A stretch of 46,967 bases of DNA from Bacillota bacterium (GTDB taxonomy: Bacteria; Bacillota_I; Bacilli_A; Izemoplasmatales; Hujiaoplasmataceae): NCBI GenBank assembly GCA_018818595.1, contig JAHIRM010000035.1, positions 1 to 46,967 of the forward strand. The letters are read 5' to 3'. The first letter of the stretch is position 1, and each line of letters opens with the position of its first letter. The position numbers and the translations under genes were made by a program. Positions 24,241-40,920 of the stretch are shown one piece after another. Below the pieces are notes generated by a model. The model searched no databases, had not been told where the DNA came from, and was given only the letters and a program-made list of their open reading frames with translations.

Positions 24241-24269
24241 TTGACAACGCTTACATTATTGGGTATAAT
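24241..24269 (+). promoter_or_regulatory. Consensus promoter of the lysine-fermentation operon
   Basis: TTGACA (24241-24246), 17 bases, then TATAAT (24264-24269): a perfect housekeeping promoter. The transcript should begin near 24276, just before the riboswitch. Such a strong promoter leaves control to the RNA element. Confidence 0.92.
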
Positions 24270-24281
24270 GAAGTTAAATTT

Positions 24282-24454
24282 AATACACACAGAGGCGCGA
24301 TATATTGGTATTTTATCGATGAAAATAAGATAAACCTTAGATGCGATAAAAAAAGGAATATATTGCCGAAAGAGATGATGGGTTAATCTGTCAAACTCTT
24401 GGTATGTGAGCGAATGCTTAAATACTGCCATCAATGATGGAGAGCTGTTATATT
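24282..24454 (+). promoter_or_regulatory. Lysine riboswitch (L box)
   Basis: The conserved L-box blocks appear in order: AGAGGCGCG (24291-24299), GCCGAAAG (24364-24371), ACTGCCATC (24424-24432) and GATGGAGAGCT (24436-24446). Five helices can be drawn. P1 is ACAG (24289-24292) with CTGT (24445-24448), extended by AATA (24282-24285) with TATT (24451-24454). P2 is CGATATATT with AATATATTG. P3 is AAGAG with CTCTT. P4 is GGTAT with ATACT, topped by AGC/GCT. P5 is CCATC-AAT-GATGG. The P1 3' strand is shared with the following terminator. Confidence 0.92.
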
Positions 24455-24478
24455 GTAAAAATATAGCGGCTTTTTTTT
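24443..24478 (+). terminator. Riboswitch expression-platform terminator
   Basis: AGCTGTTATATT (24443-24454) pairs over 12 bp, including two G-U pairs, with AATATAGCGGCT (24460-24471), followed by eight T. Its 5' arm contains the P1 3' strand of the aptamer, so terminator and lysine-bound aptamer exclude each other. Confidence 0.9.
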
Positions 24479-24495
24479 GTGGAAGGAGGGCTATT

Positions 24496-24912
24496 ATGAA
24501 AGGATTTACGCTTGAAGAAATAAAAGTCGGTCAGACCGAAACATTTACAAAAACGTTCACACTTGAAGATGTTGAATTGTTTGGTAAAATTACTGGAGAC
24601 TTAAATCCTGCACATATGGACGAAGAATATGCTAAAAACAGTATTTTTAAGAAACGGATCGTTCATGGAATGTTTGTAGGGGCATTGTTTAGCACTATAT
24701 TTGGAGTTAAACTGCCTGGACTTGGAAGTATTTATACAAAACAATCATTAAAATTTACAAAACCCGTGTTTTTTGGAGACACAATTAATGCAAAAGTTAC
24801 AGTAAAAGAGATAATCAGCGAACGAAATAGAGTGGTATTTGAATGTGTTGCGACGAACCAATACGAAGAATGTGTAGTATTGGGAGAAGCAGAAATTATG
24901 CCACCTCGATAA
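24496..24912 (+). CDS. MaoC-like (R)-specific enoyl-CoA hydratase
   Basis: Hot-dog-fold hydratases of this family add water to trans-2-enoyl-CoA to give (R)-3-hydroxyacyl-CoA, as PhaJ does. The active-site segment GDLNPAHMDEEYAKNSIFKKRIVHGMF has the Asp and His of the family (D-x-N-P-x-H). At 138 residues it is a typical single-domain member. The ATG at 24496 follows GGAAGGAGGG directly after the riboswitch terminator, so an earlier in-frame ATG inside the riboswitch is not the start. As first gene of the lysine operon it probably hydrates crotonyl-CoA, the product of Kal. It could act in the reverse direction. Confidence 0.85.
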   Translation: MKGFTLEEIKVGQTETFTKTFTLEDVELFGKITGDLNPAHMDEEYAKNSIFKKRIVHGMFVGALFSTIFGVKLPGLGSIYTKQSLKFTKPVFFGDTINAKVTVKEIISERNRVVFECVATNQYEECVVLGEAEIMPPR

Positions 24913-24921
24913 GGAGGACTA

Positions 24922-25575
24922 ATGAAAGGGTTAATAACTAAAGAAGATTTTAAATCACTTTTAAAAGACGGAATTGTTTTGATGGTTGGTGGATTTTTAA
25001 GCAATGGTAGTCCGGAAAGACTCATCGATTTAGTGCTAGAAAGTAATGTCAAAGATTTGACAATTATTTGCAATGATGGTGGATTTGAAAATTTAGGAGT
25101 CGGGAAATTAATTGCAAAACAGCGTGTTAAAAAATTAATCGCATCTCACATAGGAACAAATCCATTTGTTGGAACGTTAATGCAAACCAATGAAATGGAA
25201 GTGATTTTGGTTCCTCAAGGAACGTTAGTGGAACGAATTAGAGCTGGAGGAGCAGGGCTTGGGGGGATTTTAACACCAACCGGTCTTAATACTTTGGTTG
25301 AAGTAAACAAATGTGTAATTACGGTTCGAGGAATAGATTACTTATTAGAAGAACCTTTAAGAGCGGATATTTCTTTAATTGGAGGAGCAATTGCAGATAA
25401 ATTTGGAAATCTTCAGTTTATTCAAACAATGAGAAATTTTAATCCGGTAATGGCACTTGCTTCAGATCTTGTTGTGGTAGATGCAGTCAAACGAGTTGAA
25501 ATGCTAGATCCTGAGTGTATTATCACTCCTTTTCCTTTGGTTGACTATATTTTGGAGGATGAAACTCATGGATGA
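24922..25575 (+). CDS. atoD: Acyl-CoA:acetoacetate CoA-transferase, subunit A
   Basis: This is the alpha subunit of a 3-oxoacid-type CoA-transferase. Family features are the early glycine-rich segment [23 protein letters not shown] and the conserved [18 protein letters not shown] region. In lysine fermentation this enzyme moves CoA from a C4 acyl-CoA to the acetoacetate released by Kce. The start follows AAGGAGG. Its last eight bases overlap the beta subunit gene, as usual for such pairs. Confidence 0.9.
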
Positions 25576-26209
25576 TAAACAAATAATTGCTAAAAGAATT
25601 TCTTTAGAATTAAAAGATGGAGATTTAGTTAATTTAGGAATTGGAATTCCTACTTTGGTTGCGGATTATATAGACCATAATAAAAATATCACATTTCAAG
25701 CTGAAAACGGAGTGATTGGACTAGGACCATTAACCGAAGAAGAAACAAATCTTGTGAATGCGGGAGGAAATAAAGCTACAATCTTACCAGGAGGATCTTT
25801 TATTGATTCTTTACTATCTTTTTCTTTGATCCGAGGAGGACATATTGATATTACCGTTTTAGGAGCTTTAGAAGTGGATGAAGTAGGAAGTCTTGCTTCT
25901 TGGATTATTCCTGGTAAAAAAGTGCCAGGAATGGGTGGAGCAATGGATTTGGTGGTAGGTGCTAGAAAAGTAATTATCGCAATGACTCATACAAACAAAG
26001 GAAAACCAAAAATATTAAAAGAATGCATGTTACCACTAACGGCATTTAAACAAGCAAATCTAATTGTAACAGAAATGGCGGTCATTTCTGTAGAAAATGA
26101 TGGACTGCATTTGTTAGAAATTCATCCAGATTATACGATTGAAGAGATAAGACAAGCTACGGGAGCCGCTTTAATTATAAAAGATGTCATCCCGATGAAA
26201 GGAATATAA
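25568..26209 (+). CDS. atoA: Acyl-CoA:acetoacetate CoA-transferase, subunit B
   Basis: This is the beta subunit that carries the catalytic glutamate, here in [13 protein letters not shown] (the family's ENG motif forms the glutamyl-CoA thioester). The N-terminal [18 protein letters not shown] and the [14 protein letters not shown] segment are also typical. I chose the ATG at 25568 (MDDKQIIAK), ten bases after GGAGG; an in-frame ATG at 25541 lies within subunit A without a better site. The protein has 213 residues. Confidence 0.92.
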
Positions 26210-26211
26210 AA

Positions 26212-26592
26212 ATGAAAACAATGTTACGTGTTAGAATGTCATTTCAAGATGCTCACTATGGCGGAAATCTAGTTGATGGGGCTCGTATTCTTGGTCTTTT
26301 TGGTGATGTAGCGACTGAATTATTAATTACAAACGATGGAGATGAAGGGTTATTTAGAGCTTATGATCAAGTTGATTTTTTCGCTCCAGTTTATGCAGGA
26401 GATTATTTAGAAGTATATGGTGAAATCACACATATTGGAAACACTTCAAGAAAAATGGAGTTTTCTTGTTATAAAGTTATTCAAGCGATGCCTTCCATTT
26501 CTCCAAGTGCTGCAAGTGTATTAGAAAATAAATTATTAGTCGCAAGCGCCACAGGAACTTGTGTTGTTCCAAAATCACTTCAACGAAAATGA
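26212..26592 (+). CDS. kal: 3-Aminobutyryl-CoA ammonia-lyase
   Basis: Kal removes ammonia from L-3-aminobutyryl-CoA to make crotonyl-CoA in lysine fermentation. It is a small hot-dog protein of 126 residues. The sequence contains the characteristic N-terminal block [20 protein letters not shown] and [17 protein letters not shown], which I recognise from clostridial and fusobacterial Kal. It starts two bases after the CoA-transferase stop and overlaps kce by four bases, which suggests tight coupling. Confidence 0.92.
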
Positions 26593-27410
26593 TGACAAAA
26601 TTAATTATTACTTGCGCCATTACGGGAGCAGAAGTGACGAAGGAACAAAATCCTGCAGTTCCTTATACAATAGATGAAAATGTAAGAGAAGCATATAATG
26701 CTTATCTTGCGGGAGCTAGCATTATTCATTTACATGCAAGAATGGATGACGGTTCACCAACTCAAGATGAAAATCGGTTTCAAGAATTGATTCATGCCAT
26801 TAAAGAAAAATGTCCTGATGTTATTATCCAAGTTTCCACAGGCGGCGCTTTAGGCATGTCAAGAACAGAAAGACTTGCTCCTTTGAACCTAAACCCTGAA
26901 ATGGCAACTTTAGATTGTGGAACACTAAATTTTGGTGGAGATGATATTTTTGTTAATACAGAAAACGATATTATATATTTCGCTAAAACGATGCATGAAA
27001 AAAAGGTTCCTTATGAATTAGAATGTTTTGAAAAAGGGCATGTTGATACAGTGTTAAGGTTATACAGAAAAGGATATATTATCTCGCCCTTACGTTTTAG
27101 TTTTGTTCTTGGAGTAAACGGAGGAATGTCAGGAGAACAAAGAGATTTTCGCTTTTTAAAAGAAAGCATTCCTGAAGAAGCTACTTTTAGTGTGGCTGGA
27201 ATTGGAAAATTCGAATTTTCTTTAGCAGAAGAATCCATTATTCAAGGTGGACACGTTCGAGTTGGTCTAGAAGACAACTTATACATTGAAAAGAACCGAT
27301 TAGCATCTTCAAATGCTGAATTAGTATATAAAATCGTTGATATTGCAAAAAAACATCATCGAGAAATTGCTTCGCCAAAAGAAGCGAGAGAAATTCTAGG
27401 AATGGAGTGA
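26589..27410 (+). CDS. kce: 3-Keto-5-aminohexanoate cleavage enzyme
   Basis: Kce condenses 3-keto-5-aminohexanoate with acetyl-CoA and yields acetoacetate and 3-aminobutyryl-CoA. It belongs to the zinc-dependent BKACE (DUF849) TIM-barrel family. The zinc ligands His-x-His appear in [11 protein letters not shown], and VSTGGALG and [12 protein letters not shown] are further family blocks. The start is one of two consecutive ATG codons at 26589 or 26592; the first gives an ATGA overlap with kal. The length of 273 residues fits the family. An upstream in-frame start at 26559 lies inside kal and is unlikely. Confidence 0.93.
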
Positions 27411-27413
27411 AGT

Positions 27414-28454
27414 ATGAATAAACTATGTAAATATGGAACACATCGAGTTCTTTCTCCTTTAAAAGCATTACCTCAAGGAGCGGATATTCTTGATAATACA
27501 ATGATTTGTCAAGACAATGAAATCTTAATTGATGTAAAAACATTAAATATTGATTCAGCTTCTTTTACACAAATAAAGAACGTGTCAAACGGAAATATAG
27601 AAGCTATGAGTGAAATGATTCTTTCTATTGTATCTATGAGAGGGAAAATGCAAAATCCTGTTACAGGTTCTGGAGGAATGCTTCTGGGAACGGTTAAAGA
27701 AATAGGATCTTCTCTTAAAAAAGATTTGAAAATTGGTGATGAAATTGCATCGTTGGTTTCGTTGTCTCTAACACCGCTAAAGATTCATAAAATTTTACAG
27801 ATTCATCCTGAAAAGGATCAAGTAGACATTATTGGAGAAGCCATCTTATTTGAAACTGGAATTTATGCTAAAATACCTTCAGATTTACCTTCACATTTAG
27901 TTCTTTCTGCTTTAGATGTCGCTGGAGCTCCGGCACAAGTAAACCGTCTTGTAAAGAAAGGACAAAGCGTTTTAATTTTGGGCGCGTCTGGGAAGAGCGG
28001 ATTATTATGTGCATACCAAGCAAGAAAAAACACAGGAGAAAAAGGGAATGTCATTGGAGTAATATATGACGAAAGTCAATTAGAAGAATTACAAAGATTA
28101 GATGTTTGTCATCAAATTATAATTGGCGATGCTAGAAATCCGATGGAAATATATGAAAAAGTGTTACAGGTAAATCAAAACGAACTAGTAGATATTACTA
28201 TTAATGTAGTGAATATTCCAAACACGGAGATGACGTCAATTTTGCCTACAAAAAATACTGGGATTGTATACTTTTTTAGTATGGCAACCTCCTTTACAAA
28301 AGCTGCGCTTGGCGCAGAAGGAATTGCCAGTGAAGCTACAATGATTATTGGAAATGGGTATACGGAAAATCATGCGGAATTGACCTTAAATTTATTAAGA
28401 GAATCGCCTACGTTGTATGATATTTTTATGAAAAGATATGGAAAAGAGGAATAA
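27414..28454 (+). CDS. kdd: L-erythro-3,5-diaminohexanoate dehydrogenase
   Basis: Kdd oxidises 3,5-diaminohexanoate to 3-keto-5-aminohexanoate with NAD. The N-terminus (YGTHRVLSPLKALPQGADILDN) is distinctive of the family, and the nucleotide-binding segment SVLILGASGKSGLLCAYQAR is a Rossmann glycine-rich loop. The 346 residues are the usual length. It follows kce by three bases, with GGAGTGAAGT as ribosome binding site. Confidence 0.93.
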   Translation: MNKLCKYGTHRVLSPLKALPQGADILDNTMICQDNEILIDVKTLNIDSASFTQIKNVSNGNIEAMSEMILSIVSMRGKMQNPVTGSGGMLLGTVKEIGSSLKKDLKIGDEIASLVSLSLTPLKIHKILQIHPEKDQVDIIGEAILFETGIYAKIPSDLPSHLVLSALDVAGAPAQVNRLVKKGQSVLILGASGKSGLLCAYQARKNTGEKGNVIGVIYDESQLEELQRLDVCHQIIIGDARNPMEIYEKVLQVNQNELVDITINVVNIPNTEMTSILPTKNTGIVYFFSMATSFTKAALGAEGIASEATMIIGNGYTENHAELTLNLLRESPTLYDIFMKRYGKEE

Positions 28455-28455
28455 T

Positions 28456-29718
28456 ATGATTCAAACAAATGATGCTTACCTTGAAAGAAAGAAAAAATAT
28501 TTTCCAAACATTTTAGATTCTCAATGGAATGATTGGCATTGGCAAGTGAAAAACAGAATTACAAGTGTTGAAGAATTAAATAAATACTTGAATGTTTCCA
28601 AAGAGGAATCATCAGACATTGCTAATGTGTTAAAAAAATTCAGAATGGCAATTACTCCTTATTATTTGACACTCATTGATCCTGAAAATCCTGATTGTCC
28701 CATTCGCAAGCAAGCAATTCCTGGAATTTCTGAATTATTAATCGGCAAAAACGATATGGTTGATCCACTCGATGAAGATGTAGATTCGCCAGTACCAGGA
28801 CTCACACATAGATATCCTGATAGAGTGTTGTTTTTGATTACGGATATGTGTAGTGTGTATTGTAGGCATTGTACAAGAAGAAGATTTGCAGGGCAAACAG
28901 ACCATCAAGCACCGAGTGAAAGAATTAATAAAGCCATTGAATACATCAAAAACACGCCTCAAATTCGAGATGTTTTATTGTCTGGTGGAGACGCTTTATT
29001 ACTAAGCGATCAAATGTTAGAAAGCATCATTTCAAGACTACGCGAGATTGAACATGTAGAAATTATTCGTTTAGGGACAAGAGTTCCCGTTGTAATGCCT
29101 CAACGAATTACAACAGAACTAGTAGATATGTTAAAAAAATATCATCCAATTTGGGTAAACACCCACTTTAATCATGTTAATGAAATTACTAAAGAAAGCA
29201 AAGAAGCCATTGATAGATTAGCAGATGCTGGAATCCCTTTAGGGAATCAAAGTGTCTTGTTAAGAGGCGTCAATGATTGCTTGCCTACTATGAAGAAATT
29301 AGTAACAAAGTTAGCTCAAATTAGAGTAAGACCTTATTACATATATCAATGTGATCTTTCAGTAGGAATAGAACATTTTCGCACACCAATCTCAAAAGGT
29401 ATTGAAATAATGGAAGGGTTAAGAGGACATGTGTCTGGATATTGTGTCCCTACATTTGTAGTAGATGCGCCAGGTGGTGGAGGTAAAATTCCATTAATGC
29501 CAAACTATATTATTTCTATGGCACCAAACCGGGTAGTTTTAAGGAATTATGAGGGAGTTATTACAACGTATAGCGAACCCACAGATTATGTCAATATTGA
29601 TGATTGCGAAAATGGAAACTCAGATTCAGTTAGAGGTGTAAGCGCACTTTTAAGTGGAAAAAGAATTTCTATTGAACCAAGTTCTTTAGAAAGAAGAAAA
29701 CGGCCATTAAAACAGTAG
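28456..29718 (+). CDS. kamA: L-lysine 2,3-aminomutase
   Basis: KamA is a radical SAM, PLP-dependent enzyme converting L-lysine to L-beta-lysine, the first step of the pathway. The cluster motif CSVYCRHC (C-x3-C-x2-C) lies about residue 132-139 from this start. The GGDALLLSD segment that binds SAM and the C-terminal VDAPGGGGKIPLMPNY block with the PLP-binding lysine are both present. I chose the ATG at 28456 because AGAGGA sits five bases upstream; the ATG at 28438 lies in kdd without a site. The last residues are very basic (ERRKRPLKQ). Confidence 0.95.
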   Translation: MIQTNDAYLERKKKYFPNILDSQWNDWHWQVKNRITSVEELNKYLNVSKEESSDIANVLKKFRMAITPYYLTLIDPENPDCPIRKQAIPGISELLIGKNDMVDPLDEDVDSPVPGLTHRYPDRVLFLITDMCSVYCRHCTRRRFAGQTDHQAPSERINKAIEYIKNTPQIRDVLLSGGDALLLSDQMLESIISRLREIEHVEIIRLGTRVPVVMPQRITTELVDMLKKYHPIWVNTHFNHVNEITKESKEAIDRLADAGIPLGNQSVLLRGVNDCLPTMKKLVTKLAQIRVRPYYIYQCDLSVGIEHFRTPISKGIEIMEGLRGHVSGYCVPTFVVDAPGGGGKIPLMPNYIISMAPNRVVLRNYEGVITTYSEPTDYVNIDDCENGNSDSVRGVSALLSGKRISIEPSSLERRKRPLKQ

Positions 29719-29753
29719 CGAGTCATGTAAGAAATTATGATGTAATTAGTATT

Positions 29754-30707
29754 GTGGGAAATGCTAAAAACGCAGGTAAAACAACCGTGTTAAATAAATT
29801 AATTGATTCGTTCAAAGAAAAAATTATTGGGATAACCTCTATCGGATTAGATGGAGAAAAAATAGATCAAATTACTAGATTGCCAAAGCCAAGAATTAAA
29901 GTGTATCCCAAAATGATTGTTGGAACTGCCAAAAATTGTTTGGAAGAAATAACAGCCACTTACAAAATATTAAAAGAAACCGATATACAAACATCTATAG
30001 GAAAAATCGTTATTATTGAAATTATTGAAGAAGGTTTTTGTTTAGTTGCAGGGCCATCCCTTATAAGTGACATGGAAAAAATAATTCTTAAGTTAAAAGA
30101 ATTTCAATGCGAAAAAATATTTATAGATGGAGCTTTTTCAAGACATACAACCGCAGGTCTTGCTGATGCAACTCTTTTTTGTGTTGGAGCAAATCAAGCA
30201 AATTCCATTGAAGAAGTTATTCAAGATGCTATGATGTCCATTCAAAAATTTCAGTTGCCTCAAATTGAAGAACGGTTTGCGTTCCTTGATAAATATGAAC
30301 ACATTGCATCAATTAATCAATATGGAAAAGTTCATATATTAGATGAATCATCTACCCTAATTCATCCTGAACAAATCATTTCCGAATTGGACAAAAACAC
30401 AAAATATTTGTACATTCCAAATGCGTTAGGGCCAAAAATTATTCATGCTTTGATTAATAACAGAAATGAAATTAAAATTCATTTGATTTTACAAACACCC
30501 ATTAACTTACAAGCAAATGAAAAATTATTAAAACATTTATTTCAATTGAACCAACAAATCTATGTTATACATCCCATTCATTTGATAGCAATTATGATAA
30601 ATCCTTATTCTCCAAAAGGATATTCATTTGATAAAATTCTTTTTAAAGAATTATTTATGCAAAAAACCACATTGCCAATTTTGAATGTGCTTGAAGAAAG
30701 CGAGTAA
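29754..30707 (+). CDS. kamB: KamB-like P-loop protein, probable lysine 5,6-aminomutase reactivase component
   Basis: The protein sits between kamA and kamD, the position of KamB in other lysine fermenters. There it is thought to help reactivate the B12 enzyme; this function is by family and position only. GNAKNAGKT resembles a Walker A loop with one residue more than the strict form, and INPYSPKGYSFDK near the end looks family-specific. The coordinate given is the only conventional start (GTG), but it falls right at the P-loop and cuts off its beta strand. The frame is open back to 29676 and encodes NYDVISIV before the loop, so initiation probably lies upstream, perhaps at ATT 29706. The usual partner KamC (MutS-like) is not in this window. 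Confidence 0.7.
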   Translation: MGNAKNAGKTTVLNKLIDSFKEKIIGITSIGLDGEKIDQITRLPKPRIKVYPKMIVGTAKNCLEEITATYKILKETDIQTSIGKIVIIEIIEEGFCLVAGPSLISDMEKIILKLKEFQCEKIFIDGAFSRHTTAGLADATLFCVGANQANSIEEVIQDAMMSIQKFQLPQIEERFAFLDKYEHIASINQYGKVHILDESSTLIHPEQIISELDKNTKYLYIPNALGPKIIHALINNRNEIKIHLILQTPINLQANEKLLKHLFQLNQQIYVIHPIHLIAIMINPYSPKGYSFDKILFKELFMQKTTLPILNVLEESE

Positions 30708-30709
30708 AA

Positions 30710-32266
30710 ATGAAAAAACTACATTTAAATCAAGATAATATTGACGCATGCCGTCTTTATGCAACGCAAATTACAGATGATGTACAACATTTTATTTATC
30801 AACATACAACCGTAGCTGTTGAACGAAGTGTTTGCCGAATGCTTGGCATTGACGGAATTGATGAATTTGACGTTCCAATTCCGAATGTAATGGTAGATGA
30901 TGTTTTAAAAAACGGGGATTTGTCGTTAGGGATATCTTCGTACATAGCAAGCGCATTAGAACATTTAGGGATATCTTTAGATGAATTTGTTAAACAATAT
31001 AATTTAAAAAAAGTTAAATTATGTGATTATCCTTTATTAACTCCAACTCAAATTAAAAAGACGTTACAACCCTATTTAGAAAAATCATTAGCATTAATCA
31101 AAAAGAACAAACTAGAAAGAGAAAAAATCATTCGTGAATTTCCTGTAAAAAAAACGGAGATATATGTTATCGTTGCTACTGGGAATATTTATGAAGATGT
31201 CATTCAAGCAAAATCTGCAGCAAAAGCCGGCGCAGATATCATTGCAGTTATTCGTTCAACCGGACAATCGTTATTGGATTATGTTCCTTATGGCATAACT
31301 ACTGAGGGCTTTGGAGGAACATACGCCACACAAGCAAACTTTAAAATCATGAGACAAGCACTGGATGAAGTTTCAAAAGAAGAACACAGGTATATAAAAC
31401 TTGTAAATTACGCTTCTGGACTTTGTATGCCTGAAATTGCTGTAATGGCCGCTTTTGAACGACTTGATATTTTACTAAATGATAGTATGTATGGCATTAT
31501 ATTTAGAGATATAAATATGCAAAGAACGTTTATTGACCAATATTTTTCAAGATTGATTAATGCCTATGCAGGAATCATTATAAATACTGGAGAAGATAAT
31601 TATTTAACAACGTCGGATGCGTTTTCTGAAGCACACACCGTTTTAGCTTCTCAGTTTATCAATGAAGAATTTGCAAAAAGAGCACTTTTGAAAGAAGAAT
31701 TAATGGGATTAGGGCACGCATTTGAAATAGAACCAATGATTGAAAATAGCTTTTTATATGAAATTGCACAAGCCCAAATGGCAAGAGAGATTTTTCCAAA
31801 TGCGCCTTTAAAATATATGCCACCAACCAAACATATAAATGGGAATATTTTTAAAGCATATATGCAAAACACAATGTTTAACATAGCCACAACTTTAACA
31901 GGACAATCGATTCATTTATTAGGTATGATGACAGAAGCCATTCATACTCCATTTATGTCGGATCGATTTTTAGCTATTGAAAATGCTAAAATAATTCAAA
32001 CAGCAATGAAGGATTTAGGAGACGAAATTGATTATAAACCAAATGGAATAATCCAAACTAGAGCTCAAGAAGTTCTTCTAAATGCTAAAACGATTCTTAA
32101 AGAGATAAAGGAAAATACCCTATTTCATTCATTAGAAAATGGAGTATTTGCAAATGTGAAAAGATCTTTCACAGGTGGAAAAGGATTAGATGGTGTGATA
32201 AAAAAACACGTTAATTATATTAATGTGGTTCAAGATGCCATAAAGGAGGAACTCAATGAAAATTAA
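30710..32266 (+). CDS. kamD: Beta-lysine 5,6-aminomutase, alpha subunit
   Basis: KamD is the large subunit of the adenosylcobalamin- and PLP-dependent mutase that converts L-beta-lysine to 3,5-diaminohexanoate. Its 518 residues match the family. The TIM-barrel core is seen through ATGNIYEDVIQAKSAAKAGADIIAVIRSTGQSLLDY and YGITTEGFGGTYATQ. The start at 30710 lies two bases after the upstream stop with only a weak site (GCGAG), suggesting translational coupling. It overlaps kamE by 11 bases. Confidence 0.94.
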   Translation: MKKLHLNQDNIDACRLYATQITDDVQHFIYQHTTVAVERSVCRMLGIDGIDEFDVPIPNVMVDDVLKNGDLSLGISSYIASALEHLGISLDEFVKQYNLKKVKLCDYPLLTPTQIKKTLQPYLEKSLALIKKNKLEREKIIREFPVKKTEIYVIVATGNIYEDVIQAKSAAKAGADIIAVIRSTGQSLLDYVPYGITTEGFGGTYATQANFKIMRQALDEVSKEEHRYIKLVNYASGLCMPEIAVMAAFERLDILLNDSMYGIIFRDINMQRTFIDQYFSRLINAYAGIIINTGEDNYLTTSDAFSEAHTVLASQFINEEFAKRALLKEELMGLGHAFEIEPMIENSFLYEIAQAQMAREIFPNAPLKYMPPTKHINGNIFKAYMQNTMFNIATTLTGQSIHLLGMMTEAIHTPFMSDRFLAIENAKIIQTAMKDLGDEIDYKPNGIIQTRAQEVLLNAKTILKEIKENTLFHSLENGVFANVKRSFTGGKGLDGVIKKHVNYINVVQDAIKEELNEN

Positions 32267-32990
32267 ACCTTATGGAGATACTCTAAATGATGGCAAAGTA
32301 GAAATTAGCTTTACTTTACCATTTGAATATGGAGAGGTTGGTATTGAAGCGGCTAAAAACATAGCAAAGCAAATGGGTTTGATGGATCCACAAGTCGTAC
32401 ACGCAGAATCCATTTATGAAGGCTTCAGTTTTTATGTTATATATGGAGCCGTTCCTTTTTCAGTTGACCCAGAGATGATACACATACAAGAAATAAAGAC
32501 ACCTACTTTTTCTAGAGAAGAAATAGAGGATTTGATAGAAAAAGAATTCAATCGAGATCTCGTTTTTATTGGAGCTTCAACCGGAACGGATGCACATACC
32601 GTGGGAATTGATGCCATTATGAATATGAAAGGATTTTCTGGGCATTATGGTCTTGAAAGATATAAACATATTAAGGCCTATAACCTAGGAAGCCAAGTAT
32701 TAAACGAAGAATTTGTAAAACAAGCCAAGTTATTAAAAGCAGATGTATTATTAGTTAGCCAAACCGTCACACAAAAAGATGTTCACCTTAAAAATTTAAT
32801 TGAACTTGTAGAACTTCTCGAAGCAGAAAAAATTCGAGATAAAGTATTACTGATTGCCGGAGGGGCAAGAATCTCTCACGAATTAGCAAAAGAATTAGGG
32901 TATGATGCTGGATTTGGACCTAAGAAATACGCTGAAGATGTAGCCTCCTTTGCAGTATTAGAATTGATTCGAAGAAAAAAAGAAAATTAA
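32256..32990 (+). CDS. kamE: Beta-lysine 5,6-aminomutase, beta subunit
   Basis: KamE carries the cobalamin domain. The base-off B12 motif D-x-H-x-x-G is DAHTVG with His114 as the cobalt ligand. Lys125 in MNMKGFSGHYG is the expected PLP-binding lysine; the His-to-Lys distance of 11 residues equals that of the characterised clostridial enzyme (133 to 144). The length is 244 residues. AAGGAGGAACTCA precedes the ATG, which overlaps the end of kamD. Confidence 0.95.
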   Translation: MKIKPYGDTLNDGKVEISFTLPFEYGEVGIEAAKNIAKQMGLMDPQVVHAESIYEGFSFYVIYGAVPFSVDPEMIHIQEIKTPTFSREEIEDLIEKEFNRDLVFIGASTGTDAHTVGIDAIMNMKGFSGHYGLERYKHIKAYNLGSQVLNEEFVKQAKLLKADVLLVSQTVTQKDVHLKNLIELVELLEAEKIRDKVLLIAGGARISHELAKELGYDAGFGPKKYAEDVASFAVLELIRRKKEN

Positions 32991-33065
32991 AGGGCGTTTT
33001 GTCTTGCAAAATAGAAGAAATGATGCGAAAATAGAATCGAAATTTTTATTTGAGGTGAATCTAAA

Positions 33066-33605
33066 ATGATTACCAAAATCACACAAATATCTACAAAAAA
33101 AGGCGACTTAGGAATGACTTCAAATGCTGTGATGGAAATACTTCCTAAAGATGACATATTATTTCAAACATTAGGAAGTATTGATGAATTAAGTTCTTTC
33201 TTAGGATTAACTTATCATTTCATCCAAATTGAAGAACTTCTTTTCATTCAAAATCACTTAGAAATTATAAGCGCCATTATTGCATCGAATCCAAACCATA
33301 ATAATTACACAAAATTAAAACAAATTACCCAAGAAGATGTTCTTTTTCTTGAAATAGAAAGTCAAAAAGAATTAACGAAGCATCCACTAGAGCCTAAATT
33401 TTGTTTGCCAGGAAGTTCTACTTCGTTAGCGGGAAGCTATCTGGATGTATCAAGATCCGTTTGTAGAAGAGCGGAAAGAGAATTAACCCATTTTGCAATT
33501 AAAAAAATACGAAAAGATTTAAATTATGTTCAAATGTATTTGAACCGATTAAGTGATTTTTTATATATTCTTGCTAGAAATCAATCTAAAATAGAACCGA
33601 AATAA
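33066..33605 (+). CDS. pduO: ATP:cob(I)alamin adenosyltransferase (PduO type)
   Basis: The enzyme makes adenosylcobalamin, the cofactor of KamDE and of glutamate mutase in the next operon. PduO-family motifs are TKKGDLGMT near the N-terminus (ATP binding), VCRRAERE and YLNRLSDFLYILAR near the C-terminus. The length is 179 residues. GAGGTGAA precedes the ATG. It is separated from kamE by 75 bases without a promoter or terminator and is followed by a terminator, so it is the last gene of the lysine operon. Confidence 0.92.
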   Translation: MITKITQISTKKGDLGMTSNAVMEILPKDDILFQTLGSIDELSSFLGLTYHFIQIEELLFIQNHLEIISAIIASNPNHNNYTKLKQITQEDVLFLEIESQKELTKHPLEPKFCLPGSSTSLAGSYLDVSRSVCRRAERELTHFAIKKIRKDLNYVQMYLNRLSDFLYILARNQSKIEPK

Positions 33606-33606
33606 C

Positions 33607-33630
33607 GCATGGAATTACCATGCTTTTTTT
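33607..33630 (+). terminator. Terminator of the lysine operon
   Basis: GCATGG and CCATGC form a 6-bp stem with a 5-base loop followed by seven T. It closes the lysine transcript before the glutamate operon promoter. Confidence 0.85.
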
Positions 33631-33747: not shown

Positions 33748-34152
33748 TTGAAATCAATTGTGATTGGCGTGATTGGTGCAGATGTTCACGCAGTAGGAAA
33801 CAAAATTATCGAATATACTTTAGAAAACGCAGGATATACAGTTATTAATATCGGCGTTTTGTCTTCACAAGAAGATTTTATCAACGCAGCAATTGAGACG
33901 GATGCTAAACTAATTATGGTATCCTCCCTTTATGGGCACGGGGAAATTGATTGTAGAGGAATGAGAGATAAATGCATTGAGTCTGGCATAGGCGATATTT
34001 TACTTTATGTCGGAGGAAATATAGTTGTTGGAAAACAAAATTTTGAAGAAGTAAAAGAACGATTTTATAAGATGGGATTTAACCGGGTTTATCCACCAGG
34101 GACTCCAATTGATAAGGCATTATCGGATATTTCAGAGGACTTAGGAGAATAA
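33748..34152 (+). CDS. glmS: Glutamate mutase sigma (B12-binding) subunit
   Basis: GlmS is the small cobalamin-binding component of glutamate mutase, which interconverts L-glutamate and threo-3-methylaspartate. The base-off motif is ADVHAVG with Asp12, His14 and Gly17; [11 protein letters not shown] and YVGGNIVVG are the other B12-contact loops. The length of 134 residues is usual. The start is a TTG at 33748, seven bases after AGAGGAG. It is the first gene of the methylaspartate operon, one base before glmL. It is unrelated to the glucosamine synthase also called GlmS. Confidence 0.95.
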
Positions 34153-34153
34153 A

Positions 34154-35536
34154 ATGAGTTATTACTTACTAATTGATTTTGGATCAACGTTTACCAAATT
34201 GACCGCTGTTGATACCGCATTAGAAGATATTATTGGAACCGCTTCGCATTTTACAACTGTGGATCAAGATATTCGTATTGGTTATCATAAAGCGCTTGAA
34301 AATCTATATAATGAAATTGGTAGACAAATAAAATTTGATCAAGTCATTGCCTGTTCTTCGGCAGCTGGCGGCCTTAAAATGGCCGCTATTGGTCTAGTGG
34401 AAGAACTAACAGTGGAAGCTGCGAAAAGAGTTTGTCTTGGGGCAGGGGCAAAAATAGATTTGATTTTTTCACATCATCTTACAAAAAGAGAAGCAAAAGA
34501 ACTTATCACTCAAAAAATCGACATCATTTTACTTGCAGGAGGAGCGGATGGAGGAAATACAGAATGTGTTTTGTTCAATGCAAAACTTTTAGGTGAAATG
34601 AATGTTAAAATTCCGATAGTATATGCCGGAAATAAAACTTGCCAAGATGAAATCGAAGATATATTTAAAAAATATAATTTAGACGGATACATTTGTGATA
34701 ATGTTATGCCAAGAATTAACGTTTTAAATGTGAAATGTGCAAGAGAAAAGATTAGAGAAATTTTCTTACAAAAAATTATTGTCGCTAAAGGTATTAAAAA
34801 AATAGAAGCAGAAATAGATGAAGTTGTGTTACCGACACCAGAAGCAGTTTTATATGCAGCTGAATTGCTTTCAAAAGGCTATCTTCATGAACCTGGATTA
34901 GGAGATATTGTAATTGTGGATATTGGAGGGGCTACTACAGACCTTTATTCAATCTGTAACGCATCCAATCGAAGTGATGTAATTATTCACGGACTTGAAG
35001 AACCATTCGCAAAGAGAACAGTTGAAGGCGATTTAGGGATGAGATATTCTGCTCCAGGGATTATCAAAGCTTTAACAAAAGAAGAAATTCAGTTTATCAA
35101 TCAAGAAAAGGGTGTAGATATAGTTAATGAAGTAGCATTTCGTTATCAAAATGTTAGTTCATTACCAGAAAATCCACACGATGAATTCATAGACCAACTA
35201 TTAGCTGAAATGTGTGCCTATCGTGCAATGCATCGTCATGTTGGTAGGGTGGAAGAAGTATTTACCCCAATGGGAATGATTTATAATCAAATTGGAAAAG
35301 ATTTGACTGATATAGAGTATGTTATCGGAACGGGTGGAGTAGTTATTAATTCTAAAATCCCCACAGCAATTCTTGCTAAAACGACAAATATTTTACACAA
35401 TCATTCAGAACTTCGGCCGATTCATCCTCATTTTATGTTGGATTTTAAATACATATTAGCCGCTATGGGATTATTAAGTCAAAAAGAACCTTTGCTTGCT
35501 TTGAAAATCATGAAAAAATACATGAAAATACTTTAG
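34154..35536 (+). CDS. glmL: Glutamate mutase reactivase GlmL/MutL
   Basis: This is an ASKHA-fold ATPase, thought to exchange damaged cobalamin in glutamate mutase. The phosphate-binding segments are LIDFGSTFTKLTAVD near the N-terminus and IVIVDIGGATTDLYSI near 255. The length is 460 residues. It lies between the genes for the two mutase subunits, the standard order S-L-E. The start follows TTAGGAG, partly inside glmS. It is unrelated to the DNA mismatch-repair MutL. Confidence 0.94.
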   Translation: MSYYLLIDFGSTFTKLTAVDTALEDIIGTASHFTTVDQDIRIGYHKALENLYNEIGRQIKFDQVIACSSAAGGLKMAAIGLVEELTVEAAKRVCLGAGAKIDLIFSHHLTKREAKELITQKIDIILLAGGADGGNTECVLFNAKLLGEMNVKIPIVYAGNKTCQDEIEDIFKKYNLDGYICDNVMPRINVLNVKCAREKIREIFLQKIIVAKGIKKIEAEIDEVVLPTPEAVLYAAELLSKGYLHEPGLGDIVIVDIGGATTDLYSICNASNRSDVIIHGLEEPFAKRTVEGDLGMRYSAPGIIKALTKEEIQFINQEKGVDIVNEVAFRYQNVSSLPENPHDEFIDQLLAEMCAYRAMHRHVGRVEEVFTPMGMIYNQIGKDLTDIEYVIGTGGVVINSKIPTAILAKTTNILHNHSELRPIHPHFMLDFKYILAAMGLLSQKEPLLALKIMKKYMKIL

Positions 35537-35551
35537 AAGAGGGTTTACAAA

Positions 35552-37009
35552 ATGGAACTCAAAAACAAAAAATGGACCGAAGAAGAATTCTTGTTAGAAA
35601 GAAAGAAAGTACTTCTTGATTGGAAGACTGGAAGCGATCCCGCTCTGGATTTAGACAAAGCGATTGCTTTTTTAAAGCAAATTCCAGAACATAAAAATTT
35701 TGCGTTTAAATTAAATAACGCCAAAAAACAAGGGATTACTTTAATTCAACCAAGAGCTGGAGTCCCTGTTTTAGCAGAACATATTAAATTATTGAAACAT
35801 TTAGAAAAAAGCGGAGCTGATTTTCTTCCTTCTACTGTGGATAGTTATACAAGACAAAATAGATATGCAGAAGCGGAAAAAGGTATGAAAGAAAGCGAGC
35901 TAATTGGCAGAGCGCTTCTAAATGGGTTTCCGATAGTGAATCACGGAGTAATGGGTTGTAAATTAGTTATGGAATCCATAAATGTTCCGATTCAAGCAAG
36001 ACATGGTACACCAGACGCAAGATTGTTATCCGAAATTATTCATGCATCGGGTTGGACTTCTAATGAAGGCGGAGGCATTTCTTATAATATCCCTTATGCA
36101 AAATCAGTTCCTTTGGAAACGAGCATTCATAATTGGCAATATTGTGATCGTTTGGTTGGGTATTATGAAGAAAGAGGAATTTCAATTAACAGAGAACCTT
36201 TTGGACCTTTGACTGGAACCTTAGTTCCCCCTTCCATTTCAACTACAATTGCAATCGTCGAATCCATTCTTGCAGCTGAACAAGGAGTAAAAAACATTAC
36301 AGTTGGATATGGTATGGGCGGAAATCTTGTTCAAGATGTTGCTGCAATTAGAATGTTACAAATTCTTACTGAGAGATATCTACTTCAGTTTGGATATCAT
36401 AATATGGAAGTTTCAACCGTGTTCCATCAATGGATGGGTGGATTTCCAGAAGATGAATCTGAAGCGATGGGATTAATTGCAATGAGTTCTACGGTAGCTG
36501 CACTTTCAAAAGCGACTAAAATGATTACAAAAACCCCACATGAATCCATAGGGATTCCCACGATGGAAGTTAACGCGATGGGAATCAAAGCTTCAAAATA
36601 TATAGTGAATATTCTAAAAGATCAATCTATGCCTGAAGGAGATAAACTCTTTGAAGAAATGAATCAAATTGAAAGAGAAGTTCAAAGCTTAATGGATTGT
36701 ATCATTCGAGTTGGGGATGGAGATATTGCAAAAGGAATTGTAAAAGCATTTCAACAAGGTTTAATTGATGTACCATTTGCCCCAAGTAAATTTAATATGG
36801 GGAAGGTTCTTCCAGCAAGAGATAATGAAGGAAATATTCGTATTTTAGAGTTTGGTAATTTAGGGTTTAGTGAAGATATCAAACAATATCATCAATTAAA
36901 AATTCAAGAAAGAGCTGCATTTGAACAACGGCCCATTTCATTTCAATTAACAGTAGACGATGTCTACTCAGTAAGTATGGGAAAATTAATCGGAAGACCA
37001 AAAAAATAG
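35552..37009 (+). CDS. glmE: Glutamate mutase epsilon (catalytic) subunit
   Basis: GlmE forms the TIM barrel in which radical rearrangement of glutamate takes place. Its 485 residues are close to the 483 of the Clostridium cochlearium enzyme. Recognisable blocks are [36 protein letters not shown] (abridged: NHGV and RHGTPDAR), [14 protein letters not shown] and [14 protein letters not shown]. It follows glmL by 15 bases with GAAGAGGG as ribosome binding site. Confidence 0.95.
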
Positions 37010-37031
37010 AAAAAACTAGAAGGGAAATACT

Positions 37032-38273
37032 ATGAAAATTAAAAAAGTGATTTTGAGCGAATCATATACAGGCTTTTTTTTCGATGACCAAAAAGCAATA
37101 AAAAAAGGAGCCACGAATGATGGCTTTCTTTATTTAGGAACTCCTATAATTGAAGGTTTTACGACCGTAAGACAAAAAGGAGAAGCCATTTCGATACAAA
37201 TTATTCTTGAAAATGGAGTTGTAGGTTATGGCGATTGCGCTGCAGTCCAATATTCTGGCACAGGAGGAAGAGATCCTTTATTTATTGCAAAAAATTATAT
37301 GCCTTTTCTTGAAGAAAAAATAATTCCTTTATTGCTTTTGGAAGAAGTGGATTTATTCAAACCTTTAGCAGAAAAGTATGATAGACTGAATTTAGAAGGA
37401 AAAAAACTTCACACCGCATTAAGATACGGCATTACACAAGCATTACTAAGCGTAACAGCGAATTTTCATCATGTAACTATGGCAGAAATTGTGAGAAAGG
37501 AATATCATATTTCTAACAAGCTATATTTACCGGTTCCGATTTTTACTCAAAGCGGAGATGATAGGTATATCAATGTAGATAAAATGATTTTAAAAGAAGC
37601 GGATGTTTTACCGCATGCTTTGATTAATAACGTTGAAACAAAATTAGGAAAAGATGGGGAAATCTTAATTGCATATATTATTTGGTTAAGAGACCGCATT
37701 TTAAAACATAGAAATAATGATACCTATTTACCGGTTCTTCATATCGATGTTTATGGAACAATTGGAAACATTTACGACAATGATATTGATAAAATGATTC
37801 AATATCTTTTAAAACTTGAAGAAACGGCAAAACCATTTAAAATACGAGTAGAAGGGCCCGTTGACACAGGCGATCGCGAAGGAACATTAAGCTATCTAAG
37901 TATTTTAACAAAAAGAATAAATATGTTAGGTTCCACACTAGAAATAGTTGCTGATGAATGGTGTAATACCCTTGAAGACGTAAAACTATTTGCCGATAAC
38001 AATGCAGGGCATATGCTTCAAATTAAAACTCCTGATTTAGGGGGAATCAACAATGTAATCGAAGCAATTCTGTATTGCAATAAAAAGAATATTGGCAGTT
38101 ATTGCGGAGGTACTTGTAATGAAACCAATATTTCAGCTGAAGTCACAACTAATATAGCAATTGCATGTGAAGCCAACCAATGTTTAGCTAAACCTGGAAT
38201 GGGCGTTGATGCTGGATACATGATAGTAAAAAATGAGATGAATCGAGTTATCGCAAGAGCCAATCAATCCTAG
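37032..38273 (+). CDS. mal: Methylaspartate ammonia-lyase
   Basis: The enzyme eliminates ammonia from threo-3-methylaspartate to give mesaconate. It belongs to the enolase superfamily; 413 residues equals the C. tetanomorphum enzyme. Catalytic Lys332 lies in LQIKTPDLGG, and the metal ligands are in HIDVYG (Asp), RVEGPVD (Glu) and VADEWCN (Asp). The N-terminal GDCAAVQYSGTGGRDP is family-specific. It confirms that the mutase feeds the methylaspartate route. The next step, mesaconate hydration, has no gene in this window. Confidence 0.95.
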   Translation: MKIKKVILSESYTGFFFDDQKAIKKGATNDGFLYLGTPIIEGFTTVRQKGEAISIQIILENGVVGYGDCAAVQYSGTGGRDPLFIAKNYMPFLEEKIIPLLLLEEVDLFKPLAEKYDRLNLEGKKLHTALRYGITQALLSVTANFHHVTMAEIVRKEYHISNKLYLPVPIFTQSGDDRYINVDKMILKEADVLPHALINNVETKLGKDGEILIAYIIWLRDRILKHRNNDTYLPVLHIDVYGTIGNIYDNDIDKMIQYLLKLEETAKPFKIRVEGPVDTGDREGTLSYLSILTKRINMLGSTLEIVADEWCNTLEDVKLFADNNAGHMLQIKTPDLGGINNVIEAILYCNKKNIGSYCGGTCNETNISAEVTTNIAIACEANQCLAKPGMGVDAGYMIVKNEMNRVIARANQS

Positions 38274-38284
38274 GAGGAATATTC

Positions 38285-38533
38285 ATGAAAATAGGTATTG
38301 CAGGAACGTTAGAGTCAAGCGATGTCATGATCACCGTTAAAACAAGTCAAGAATTAAAAGTAACAATACATAGTGCTGTTGATGATTTTTTTCATGATCA
38401 AATTGAAAAAGTCATTTTTGATACTTTAAAAGAATTAAACATCAATAAAATTGATGTTCTTTGTGAAGACAAAGGTGCTTTGGATTATACGATTAAATCA
38501 AGACTTATAACTGCAATAAAAAGAATGGAGTGA
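38285..38533 (+). CDS. citD: Citrate/citramalate lyase acyl carrier protein (gamma)
   Basis: This small carrier of 82 residues bears the phosphoribosyl-dephospho-CoA group of the lyase. The modification site is the serine pair in AGTLESSDVMI (residues 11-12), and GALDYTIKSRLITAIKR is the conserved end. AGGAGG lies before the ATG. Position after methylaspartate ammonia-lyase implies a citramalate-cleaving complex. Confidence 0.93.
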   Translation: MKIGIAGTLESSDVMITVKTSQELKVTIHSAVDDFFHDQIEKVIFDTLKELNINKIDVLCEDKGALDYTIKSRLITAIKRME

Positions 38534-38538
38534 CTTAA

Positions 38539-39414
38539 ATGTTAAGAAGTTTACTTTTTATTCCTGGAAACAACCCAAATATGATTCAAAATGCAGATGT
38601 GTTTGGCGCAGATGGAATCATATTTGATTTAGAAGATTCTGTAAACGTTGTTGAAAAAGATAATGCTAGAGTGTTGATAAAAAATTACCTTGCTTTACCA
38701 AGTTTGTTTAGTGGTTTGATTGTCATCAGAATAAATGGAGAAAATTCTCCCTATTTTGAAGATGACTTAGAAAGCATGGTTTGTGATCAAATTGATACAA
38801 TCATGTTACCAAAAGCTAGGATTGATTCAATTATAAAATTAGACAAAATATTATCAAGTATAGAAAAAAAGAAAAATCTTAAAAAAGTAATTGGAATCAT
38901 TCCAATTATTGAAGAGGCTTCATCGGTACTTGAAGTGGATACGATAGCTTCGCTTAATAGAGTGAATGGATTGCTTTTAGGAGCAGAAGACTTATGTAGT
39001 GATTTAGAAATTCCAAGAACCAAAGAAGGAAGAGAAATAGAATATGCAAGATCAAAGGTAATTATGGCCTGCAAAGCATATAAAATAGATTCGATTGACA
39101 CTCCTTTTACTGATGTAATTGATGACGAAGGATTTATGAGAGATGCAAAAAATGCTTGCCTTCTTGGAATGACTTCAAAGGCAGCTATTCACCCAAGACA
39201 TATCGAAGGAATCAATTCTGTTTTTTCTCCAAGTGAAGAATCAATTTTATGGTCAATGAAAATTCTAGAGGGTGAAAAAAAAGCGAAAGAAAAGGGATTA
39301 GGCGTTTTTAGCTTGGATGGGAAAATGATTGATAAACCAATAATTGAAAGAGCGAGTAAAATAATTGAGAAAGCCTCAAAATACAATTTAATGAGGAAAT
39401 ATAATGAAAAATAG
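38539..39414 (+). CDS. citE: Citrate/citramalate lyase beta subunit
   Basis: CitE cleaves the acyl-carrier thioester, releasing pyruvate from citramalyl-ACP or oxaloacetate from citryl-ACP. It is a TIM barrel of the HpcH/HpaI family: RSLLFIPGNNPNMIQNA, then FDLEDSV with metal ligands, IIPIIEEASSV, LGAEDLC and KAAIHPRHIEGIN. The length of 291 residues is typical. GGAGTGA precedes the ATG, and the gene overlaps citF by 11 bases. Sequence alone does not separate citrate from citramalate use. Confidence 0.92.
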   Translation: MLRSLLFIPGNNPNMIQNADVFGADGIIFDLEDSVNVVEKDNARVLIKNYLALPSLFSGLIVIRINGENSPYFEDDLESMVCDQIDTIMLPKARIDSIIKLDKILSSIEKKKNLKKVIGIIPIIEEASSVLEVDTIASLNRVNGLLLGAEDLCSDLEIPRTKEGREIEYARSKVIMACKAYKIDSIDTPFTDVIDDEGFMRDAKNACLLGMTSKAAIHPRHIEGINSVFSPSEESILWSMKILEGEKKAKEKGLGVFSLDGKMIDKPIIERASKIIEKASKYNLMRKYNEK

Positions 39415-40915
39415 TCTTGGAAGATGGATTCCAGATGATGCGAAACCTTTTATATCAAGTCATAACTATTTAACAGAAAAAAGAAAATTCATTGAAGAAA
39501 AGAAGCAGGGTGAAAAAACACTGTTTTTTTCCTCTTACAAAGATGCGTTTCATCATTTCAAGTTAAAATCTGAAATGACTTTTTCTTTTCATCATCATTT
39601 GCGTAACGGAGATTATGTTCTGAATCAAGTGTGCAAAACAGTAGAAGAAGAAGGGCTAACAAATTTGCATTTTGCACCAAGTTCAATTTTTCCAAGTTAT
39701 ATTGGGTTGATTGACTTGATAAAAAACGAACAAATAACTAATATTCATACCAATTATCTTAATGGGCCTGTTTCTTCAATCATAAAAGATGGATTTCTAA
39801 AAGGGAAATTAATTATGAATACGCACGGAGGAAGAGCTAGATCAATCGAAAGCGGAGAATTACCAATTGATGTTGCGTTTTTAGCTTGTCCAACTGTTGA
39901 TAAGTTAGGAAATGGCAGTGGATCACAAGGAAAAAGCGCTTGTGGGACTTTGGGATATGCAATAAGCGATTTAAAATATGCTAAAACAGTATTATTAGTC
40001 ACAGATAATGTGATAGAGCATTTAGATGAATTTCAATTTGATCATAAGTATGTCGATGGAATTATTGTGGTGGATTCTATAGGGGACCCATCTGGAATTG
40101 TTTCCGGAACAACTAAAATCACCAGAGACCCCATTGGGTTAAAAATAGCAAAAGATACTTCCATTTTACTGAATGAATTAGGAGTACTTCAAAATGGTTT
40201 TTCAATGCAAACCGGAGCAGGAGGAACATCTCTTGCTGTAGTTGATTATATAAAAAATATAATGATTAAAAAATCAATTAAAGGATCTTTTGCTTCAGGA
40301 GGAATTACCGGCCATTATGTAGATATGATGAAACACAATTTGTTTAGTCGGCTTTATGATGTTCAATGTTTTGATTTAGAAGCAATCAAATCATTTAAAG
40401 AAAATTCGAATCACATCGCTATTTCTGCTTCAAAATATGGTAATCCTTTTGAAGAAAGTCCTATCGTAAATGATTTAAGCTTTGTAATACTAGGAGCTAC
40501 TGAAATTGATTTAGATTTTAATGTAAATGTTACAACGGATTCCTTGGGAAATATTATAGGTGGAAGCGGAGGTCATTCTGACACGTCAAATGGAGCGAAT
40601 ATAACGATTATTACGTCTGCGCTTACTAAATCTAGAGTTCCGATAATAAAAGAGCGTGTGACCACAATTTCTACGCCTGGAGAAGATGTAGATATACTAG
40701 TGACCGAAAGAGGAATTGCAATCAACCCTAAAAGACAAGATTTAATAAGTAAATTAATTCATTCATCACTAAAAATAGTAACGATTGAAAAATTAATGGA
40801 AATTACGTATAAAATTACTGGAATTCCGAAAGCAATCGAGAAAAGTGATTCTATTATCGGACTAGTTGAATACAGAGATGGAAGCATTATTGATTGTCTA
40901 TATAAATCGAGGTGA
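39404..40915 (+). CDS. citF: Citrate/citramalate lyase alpha subunit
   Basis: CitF is the acyl-transferase subunit that exchanges acetate on the carrier for the incoming dicarboxylic acid. The 503 residues carry SFHHHLRNGDYVLNQV near the N-terminus, MNTHGGRARSIESGELPIDVAFLACP in the middle, GGSGGHSDTSNGA and VTERGIAINPKRQDL near the end. All are typical CitF blocks. The start overlaps citE and follows GAGGAAA. Confidence 0.93.
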   Translation: MKNSLGRWIPDDAKPFISSHNYLTEKRKFIEEKKQGEKTLFFSSYKDAFHHFKLKSEMTFSFHHHLRNGDYVLNQVCKTVEEEGLTNLHFAPSSIFPSYIGLIDLIKNEQITNIHTNYLNGPVSSIIKDGFLKGKLIMNTHGGRARSIESGELPIDVAFLACPTVDKLGNGSGSQGKSACGTLGYAISDLKYAKTVLLVTDNVIEHLDEFQFDHKYVDGIIVVDSIGDPSGIVSGTTKITRDPIGLKIAKDTSILLNELGVLQNGFSMQTGAGGTSLAVVDYIKNIMIKKSIKGSFASGGITGHYVDMMKHNLFSRLYDVQCFDLEAIKSFKENSNHIAISASKYGNPFEESPIVNDLSFVILGATEIDLDFNVNVTTDSLGNIIGGSGGHSDTSNGANITIITSALTKSRVPIIKERVTTISTPGEDVDILVTERGIAINPKRQDLISKLIHSSLKIVTIEKLMEITYKITGIPKAIEKSDSIIGLVEYRDGSIIDCLYKSR

Positions 40916-40920
40916 ATAGT

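What the first reader, a model, noticed from the sequence alone, without database searches (positions are those of the whole stretch)
24282..24495. Lysine riboswitch placed in front of a lysine-degradation operon
The conserved L-box blocks and five helices are visible directly upstream of an operon that ferments lysine. Known L boxes mostly switch off lysine biosynthesis or uptake. Here the same sensor heads catabolic genes, so the logic should be reversed. I have a vague memory of L boxes being suggested before lysine catabolic genes, so the placement may not be new; a literature search would settle that.
Basis: partly seen in the sequence, partly recalled or inferred. Interest (0 to 1): 0.85.

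Follow-up and report, generated by a model that had tools for sequence, protein, structure and literature searches.

The report
Lysine-activated riboswitch before lysine-fermentation operon
A lysine-sensing RNA sits in front of the genes that ferment lysine and is built so that lysine should turn them on; this placement and logic were already proposed in the literature, and this is a well-supported new example in a Mycoplasma-related lineage.

Summary
Rfam's lysine riboswitch model scores 73.2 bits (cut-off 30) at 24282-24455 +. It lies 12 bases behind a perfect sigma-70 promoter and directly before an 11-gene operon that holds every curated lysine-fermentation gene tested (kal, kce, kdd, kamA, kamB, kamD, kamE).

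The reversed logic is supported by anatomy. The left arm of the leader terminator (24440-24478) is itself the 3' strand of aptamer helix P1, so lysine-stabilised P1 and the terminator exclude each other: lysine should switch transcription ON. The other lysine riboswitch of this genome heads an importer and has the usual OFF layout.

Across relatives the terminator overlaps P1 in 44 of 44 scored catabolic L boxes and in 1 of 63 scored biosynthesis or uptake L boxes, including 25 of 25 scorable genomes that carry both. Catabolic L boxes also form their own aptamer group on the best tree (support weak).

It is not a new kind. Mukherjee et al. 2017 list L boxes before kal/kce, and Barrick & Breaker 2007 cite ON-type lysine riboswitches from Rodionov et al. 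2003. I found no experimental proof of a natural ON lysine riboswitch in the papers held. The mechanism here is inferred from sequence.

The parts
24241..24269 (+). sigma-70 promoter, TTGACA-N17-TATAAT
   Evidence: 12 of 12 consensus matches; start of transcription inferred at about 24276
24282..24455 (+). lysine riboswitch aptamer (L box, five helices)
   Evidence: RF00168, 73.2 bits, cut-off 30
24289..24292 (+). P1 5' strand, ACAG
   Evidence: pairs with 24445-24448
24445..24448 (+). P1 3' strand, CUGU, shared with the terminator's left arm
24440..24478 (+). intrinsic terminator: 11-pair core stem 24444-24454 / 24460-24470, loop 24455-24459, U-run 24471-24478
   Evidence: -16.4 kcal/mol, z -6.2; sequence
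24483..24489 (+). ribosome binding site AAGGAGG of the first gene
   Evidence: sequence
24496..24912 (+). MaoC-like hydratase (first gene)
   Evidence: PF01575, 82.3 bits; start at 24496
24922..25575 (+). CoA-transferase subunit A
   Evidence: TIGR02429 over cut-off
25568..26209 (+). CoA-transferase subunit B
   Evidence: TIGR02428 over cut-off
26212..26592 (+). kal, 3-aminobutyryl-CoA ammonia lyase
   Evidence: NF052388, 188.7 bits, cut-off 160
26592..27410 (+). kce, 3-keto-5-aminohexanoate cleavage enzyme
   Evidence: NF052387, 403 bits, cut-off 382
27414..28454 (+). kdd, 3,5-diaminohexanoate dehydrogenase
   Evidence: NF052381, 247 bits, cut-off 200
28456..29718 (+). kamA, lysine 2,3-aminomutase
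   Evidence: TIGR03820, 614 bits, cut-off 525
29754..30707 (+). kamB, lysine 5,6-aminomutase reactivase subunit
   Evidence: NF052386, 281 bits, cut-off 210
30710..32266 (+). kamD, lysine 5,6-aminomutase alpha
   Evidence: NF052384, 819 bits, cut-off 600
32256..32990 (+). kamE, lysine 5,6-aminomutase beta
   Evidence: NF052385, 371 bits, cut-off 280
33066..33605 (+). cobalamin adenosyltransferase (cofactor for lysine 5,6-aminomutase), last gene of the operon
   Evidence: PF01923, 117.6 bits, cut-off 24; TIGR00636 98.9 bits, just under its cut-off 108.45
33607..33630 (+). terminator at the end of the operon, GCAUGG-AAUUA-CCAUGC-U7
   Evidence: -8.8 kcal/mol, z -3.3

Best explanation
The leader is a transcriptional ON riboswitch for lysine. 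RNA polymerase starts at about 24276 and makes the aptamer. If lysine binds, the aptamer holds the bases CUGU at 24445-24448 in helix P1. These bases are also the lower left arm of the terminator 24440-24478, so the terminator cannot form and the 11-gene lysine-fermentation operon is transcribed. Without lysine, the right arm (24460-24470) captures that strand as it leaves the polymerase, destroys P1 and the J5/1 side of the binding pocket, and transcription stops at the U-run. The contest must be kinetic: the terminated fold is about 14 kcal/mol more stable than the P1 fold in the model, so lysine has to bind before the right arm is made. Shown here: aptamer, promoter, terminator, their overlap, gene content and conservation of the layout. 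Inferred: lysine binding, direction of regulation, timing, and that the genes form one transcript.
For: Aptamer 73.2 bits. Perfect promoter just upstream. Terminator z -6.2. P1 pairing probability is 0.45-0.77 while the right arm is not yet complete and 0.0 once position 24470 is out; P1-forced fold -45.1, terminator fold -59.2 kcal/mol. The genome's other L box (G000:C2, L001) heads an SBP-permease-ATPase importer; its terminator starts 25 bases after the aptamer, and its P1 3' strand GGCGCU can pair with the terminator's left arm AGCGUC, the classical OFF layout. In relatives, terminators overlap P1 in 44 of 44 scored catabolic L boxes and 1 of 63 scored others (Fisher 1.9e-29); in 25 of 25 scorable genomes with both kinds the two differ this way. 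All 17 further catabolic L boxes, among them Caloramator fervidus, Vallitalea and Christensenella, fold a hairpin that takes in part or all of the P1 3' strand. Downstream genes are the whole lysine-fermentation pathway.
Against: No experiment. The count is not independent: on the aptamer tree the catabolic and other L boxes separate by a single change, so the contrast may be one evolutionary event kept ever since. P1 has only four pairs in the window. In Clostridium rhizosphaerae (L189) the overlapping hairpin has no U-run and another terminator lies further down; in Caloramator (L145) the U-run is weak.
Confidence: 0.9

Rival explanations
1. It is an ordinary OFF switch that lowers lysine catabolism when lysine is high.
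For: Nearly all characterised L boxes are OFF switches (PMC11477304), and the other L box of this genome is laid out as OFF.
Against: An OFF switch needs P1 and terminator to coexist, with an antiterminator between them. Here P1 and terminator share bases and no room for an antiterminator is left. It would also make no metabolic sense.
Confidence: 0.04
2. The aptamer has drifted and binds another ligand of the pathway (for example beta-lysine or 3,5-diaminohexanoate) while keeping the ON layout.
For: Catabolic aptamers share a P2 internal-loop change (GGUA in 57 of 66, AGUA in 68 of 70 of the others) and group apart on the tree.
Against: The conserved junction blocks AGAGG, GCCGAA, CUGCCA and GGAG are kept, and the changed loop lies in helix P2, away from the five-way junction where lysine binds (general knowledge of the crystal structures).
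Confidence: 0.05
3. Relic aptamer plus constitutive attenuator: no regulation by lysine.
For: No experiment excludes it.
Against: The overlap of P1 and terminator is conserved while the sequences vary, and both elements stay intact in dozens of species.
Confidence: 0.02

Closest known systems
Catabolic L boxes before kal/kce in Clostridium sticklandii, Fusobacterium nucleatum, Thermoanaerobacter tengcongensis and T. wiegelii (Mukherjee et al. 2017, PMC5584792)
   Same: Same riboswitch class, same pathway genes, positive regulation stated.
   Different: Other phyla and shorter operons named; here a MaoC-CoA-transferase-kal-kce-kdd-kamABDE operon in an Izemoplasmatales-like lineage, with the ON layout resolved to bases and compared across species.
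ON-type lysine riboswitches predicted by Rodionov et al. 2003 (NAR 31:6748), as cited in Barrick & Breaker 2007 (PMC2258182)
   Same: Ligand binding buries part of the terminator stem in an alternative pairing.
   Different: The 2003 text is not held here, so which species and genes it covers could not be checked.
Classical L boxes of lysC, asd, lysA and lysine importers (RF00168, OFF)
   Same: Same aptamer fold and family model.
   Different: There the terminator lies beyond P1 and an antiterminator reverses the logic; here P1 itself is the antiterminator.
ON switches for glycine and adenine that bury a terminator arm in the ligand-stabilised aptamer
   Same: Same principle: the aptamer sequesters a terminator arm.
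   Different: Different aptamers, ligands and genes.

Membership tests
Lysine riboswitch (RF00168) | Covariance-model score over the curated threshold, full-length match | tested here: met
   73.2 bits against 30, model 1-182
Lysine riboswitch (RF00168) | Conserved junction nucleotides around the lysine pocket | tested here: met
   AGAGG, GCCGAA, CUGCCA, GGAG present in the alignment
Lysine riboswitch (RF00168) | Canonical P2 internal loop (AGUA / GAAAGG) | tested here: not met
   Window has GGUA / AAAAGG; most catabolic L boxes vary here. Barrick & Breaker note variants lacking the K-turn, so this is not a bar to membership
Lysine riboswitch (RF00168) | Binds lysine | not testable with these tools
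   Needs in-line probing or calorimetry
ON-type transcriptional riboswitch | Terminator shares bases with a helix that the ligand stabilises | tested here: met
   P1 3' strand 24445-24448 lies in the left arm of 24440-24478
ON-type transcriptional riboswitch | Read-through rises with ligand | not testable with these tools
   Needs in vitro transcription
Lysine-fermentation (kam) operon | kamA, kamD, kamE, kdd, kce, kal present together | tested here: met
   All over curated NCBIfam cut-offs, plus kamB

The most novel reading that the evidence does not exclude
Catabolic ON L boxes are a separate, old aptamer lineage with its own P2 loop that travels with the kal/kce genes across Bacilli and Clostridia, rather than local rewiring of OFF L boxes, and may be tuned to the higher lysine levels of catabolism.
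Probability: 0.4. Interest if true: 0.5.

Novelty: new member of a known kind. Interest (0 to 1): 0.4.

Why it matters
It gives many natural lysine-ON switches, some in genomes that also carry lysine-OFF switches, so the same ligand and aptamer fold can be compared under both logics. ON lysine switches are wanted in metabolic engineering and have been made artificially (Zhou & Zeng 2015, cited in PMC10974012). I found no test of a natural one in the papers held.

Tried and rejected
Rodionov et al. 2003 could not be read (not held). The terminator scan missed the leader terminator, probably because the stem can extend into the U-run; direct folding showed it. A first overlap scan gave three composite hairpins in the non-catabolic set (L013, L040, L060) where P1 and terminator arms were joined; a stricter hairpin finder resolved them. 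L023 was first classed as non-catabolic because its locus is short; it carries MaoC and has the ON layout, and was moved by hand. L237 was first labelled an OFF control but encodes Kal, and was relabelled. Kal loci from Bacteroidales, Lokiarchaeia, Myxococcales and others that were scanned showed no L box in the stretch held, so the L box is not a general feature of the pathway.

Full report
What is there. The Rfam lysine riboswitch model matches 24282-24455 on the + strand with 73.2 bits against a curated threshold of 30, over its full length. A promoter that matches the sigma-70 consensus at all 12 positions ends at 24269, 12 bases upstream. Behind the aptamer, 24440-24478 forms a terminator: a core of 11 pairs (24444-24454 with 24460-24470), a 5-base loop and eight U; it folds at -16.4 kcal/mol with z -6.2. 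A ribosome site AAGGAGG and the ATG of the first gene follow at 24496.

The operon. The genes are a MaoC-like hydratase, two CoA-transferase subunits, kal, kce, kdd, kamA, kamB, kamD and kamE; the seven named lysine-fermentation proteins all pass their curated NCBIfam cut-offs. A cobalamin adenosyltransferase follows, which fits the B12-dependent lysine 5,6-aminomutase. A terminator stands right behind it at 33607-33630. The glutamate mutase, methylaspartate lyase and citrate-lyase-like genes further on therefore look like another unit. That the genes from 24496 to 33605 form one transcript is inferred from spacing and strand.

The logic. In classical L boxes the terminator lies beyond helix P1, and an antiterminator uses the P1 3' strand when lysine is absent, so lysine causes termination (established knowledge of lysC leaders). 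Here the P1 3' strand CUGU (24445-24448) is inside the left arm of the terminator itself. P1 and terminator cannot coexist, so what stabilises P1 prevents termination. In the energy model P1 has pairing probability 0.45-0.77 while the right arm is incomplete and zero once 24470 is transcribed; the terminator fold is 14 kcal/mol below the P1 fold. The switch would thus be kinetic: lysine must bind before the polymerase finishes the right arm.

Internal control. The genome has one other L box, at G000:C2:25179-25352, in front of a binding protein, permease and ATPase of an amino-acid importer. Its terminator begins 25 bases after the aptamer, and the P1 3' strand GGCGCU can pair with the terminator's left arm AGCGUC (sequence): the OFF layout.

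Comparison. RF00168 was sought in 101 genomes of the window's family, order and class; 78 have it. With the window, 112 L boxes were sorted by what follows: 48 have kal, kce, the CoA-transferase or (L023) MaoC, and 64 do not; the latter head importer binding proteins (38), M20 amidohydrolases (11), lysA-like genes (9), NhaC-like (4) and YfcC-like (1) carriers, with one unassigned. These labels of the non-catabolic groups, apart from the importer of the window's own genome, rest on reading the sequences and not on a family search. With one finder for both groups, the terminator's left arm began at or before the P1 3' strand in 44 of 44 scored catabolic cases and in 1 of 63 scored others (Fisher 1.9e-29). 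Four catabolic leaders were not scored by the stricter finder; three of them (L086, L089, L093) show the overlap with the first finder, and the fourth (L088) has a hairpin GUUAUAUU-GACA-AAUAUAAC followed by ten T, seen by eye. Among 26 genomes with both kinds, all 25 scorable pairs differ in this way.

Further lineages. A scan of genome contigs with a Kal alignment gave 80 named loci; those closest to the window are from Tenericutes, Candidatus Izemoplasmatales and Mycoplasmatota, which places the window's organism near there (inference). L boxes precede kal also in Caloramator fervidus, Vallitalea, Clostridium rhizosphaerae, an Oscillospiraceae, a Lachnospiraceae and a Christensenella genome, and in other families of the window's class. 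All 17 of these fold a hairpin that includes part or all of the P1 3' strand. The hairpin of Clostridium rhizosphaerae has no U-run and a separate terminator lies further down, so its mechanism is unsure; the U-run of Caloramator is weak.

Two kinds of aptamer. With P1 left out of the alignment, the tree of 136 aptamers separates catabolic from other L boxes by one change against about 45 in shuffles; support of the dividing branch is only 60, while a branch holding 60 catabolic rows has 96. L boxes before asd, lysC, dapA-like and carrier genes in the clostridial genomes fall with the other OFF L boxes. In the P2 internal loop, 57 of 66 catabolic L boxes read GGUA and 68 of 70 others AGUA. This suggests an old catabolic lineage, but it also means the statistical contrast above may rest on a single event.

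What is known. Mukherjee et al. 2017 (PMC5584792) have a section on L boxes before kal and kce in C. sticklandii, F. nucleatum and two Thermoanaerobacter species and call them positively regulated. Barrick & Breaker 2007 (PMC2258182) state that certain lysine riboswitches with ON logic, citing Rodionov et al. 2003, bury pieces of terminator stems. So both placement and logic are known as predictions. Eight full-text searches brought up no experimental test of a natural ON lysine riboswitch; the library lacks most subscription papers, so this is weak evidence of absence.

Verdict. A real, well-supported new member of a known kind: a lysine-ON transcriptional riboswitch before a lysine-fermentation operon. 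The added value is the base-level layout, the paired ON and OFF comparison within genomes, and the sign of a separate catabolic aptamer lineage.

Noticed in passing
L159:3143-3480 and L178:3090-3430: Oscillospiraceae and Lachnospiraceae catabolic leaders carry two terminators in a row; the second is preceded by a near copy of the P1 3' strand region (AUGAAGCGCUAUUG). Double checkpoint or duplication.
   Followed up: no
L229 (G091:C34:55349-55534): The single importer L box whose terminator overlaps P1 (-17..0): it heads binding protein, permease and ATPase genes, so an ON-type importer, or a misread short hairpin.
   Followed up: partly
L237 and L159 (genome G472): This Oscillospiraceae genome has two L boxes, both followed by kal and both of ON layout.
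   Followed up: partly
L189:3191-3480: Clostridium rhizosphaerae kal L box: overlapping hairpin without a U-run and a separate terminator about 70 bases after the aptamer; mechanism unclear.
   Followed up: partly
33748-41934: Next to the lysine operon lies a glutamate fermentation cluster by the methylaspartate route (glutamate mutase S, L, E, methylaspartate ammonia-lyase, citrate-lyase-like genes).
   Followed up: partly
L169:1-103: A cobalamin riboswitch lies upstream of the lysine-fermentation L box in an Acholeplasmataceae genome, in keeping with the B12 need of the pathway.
   Followed up: no
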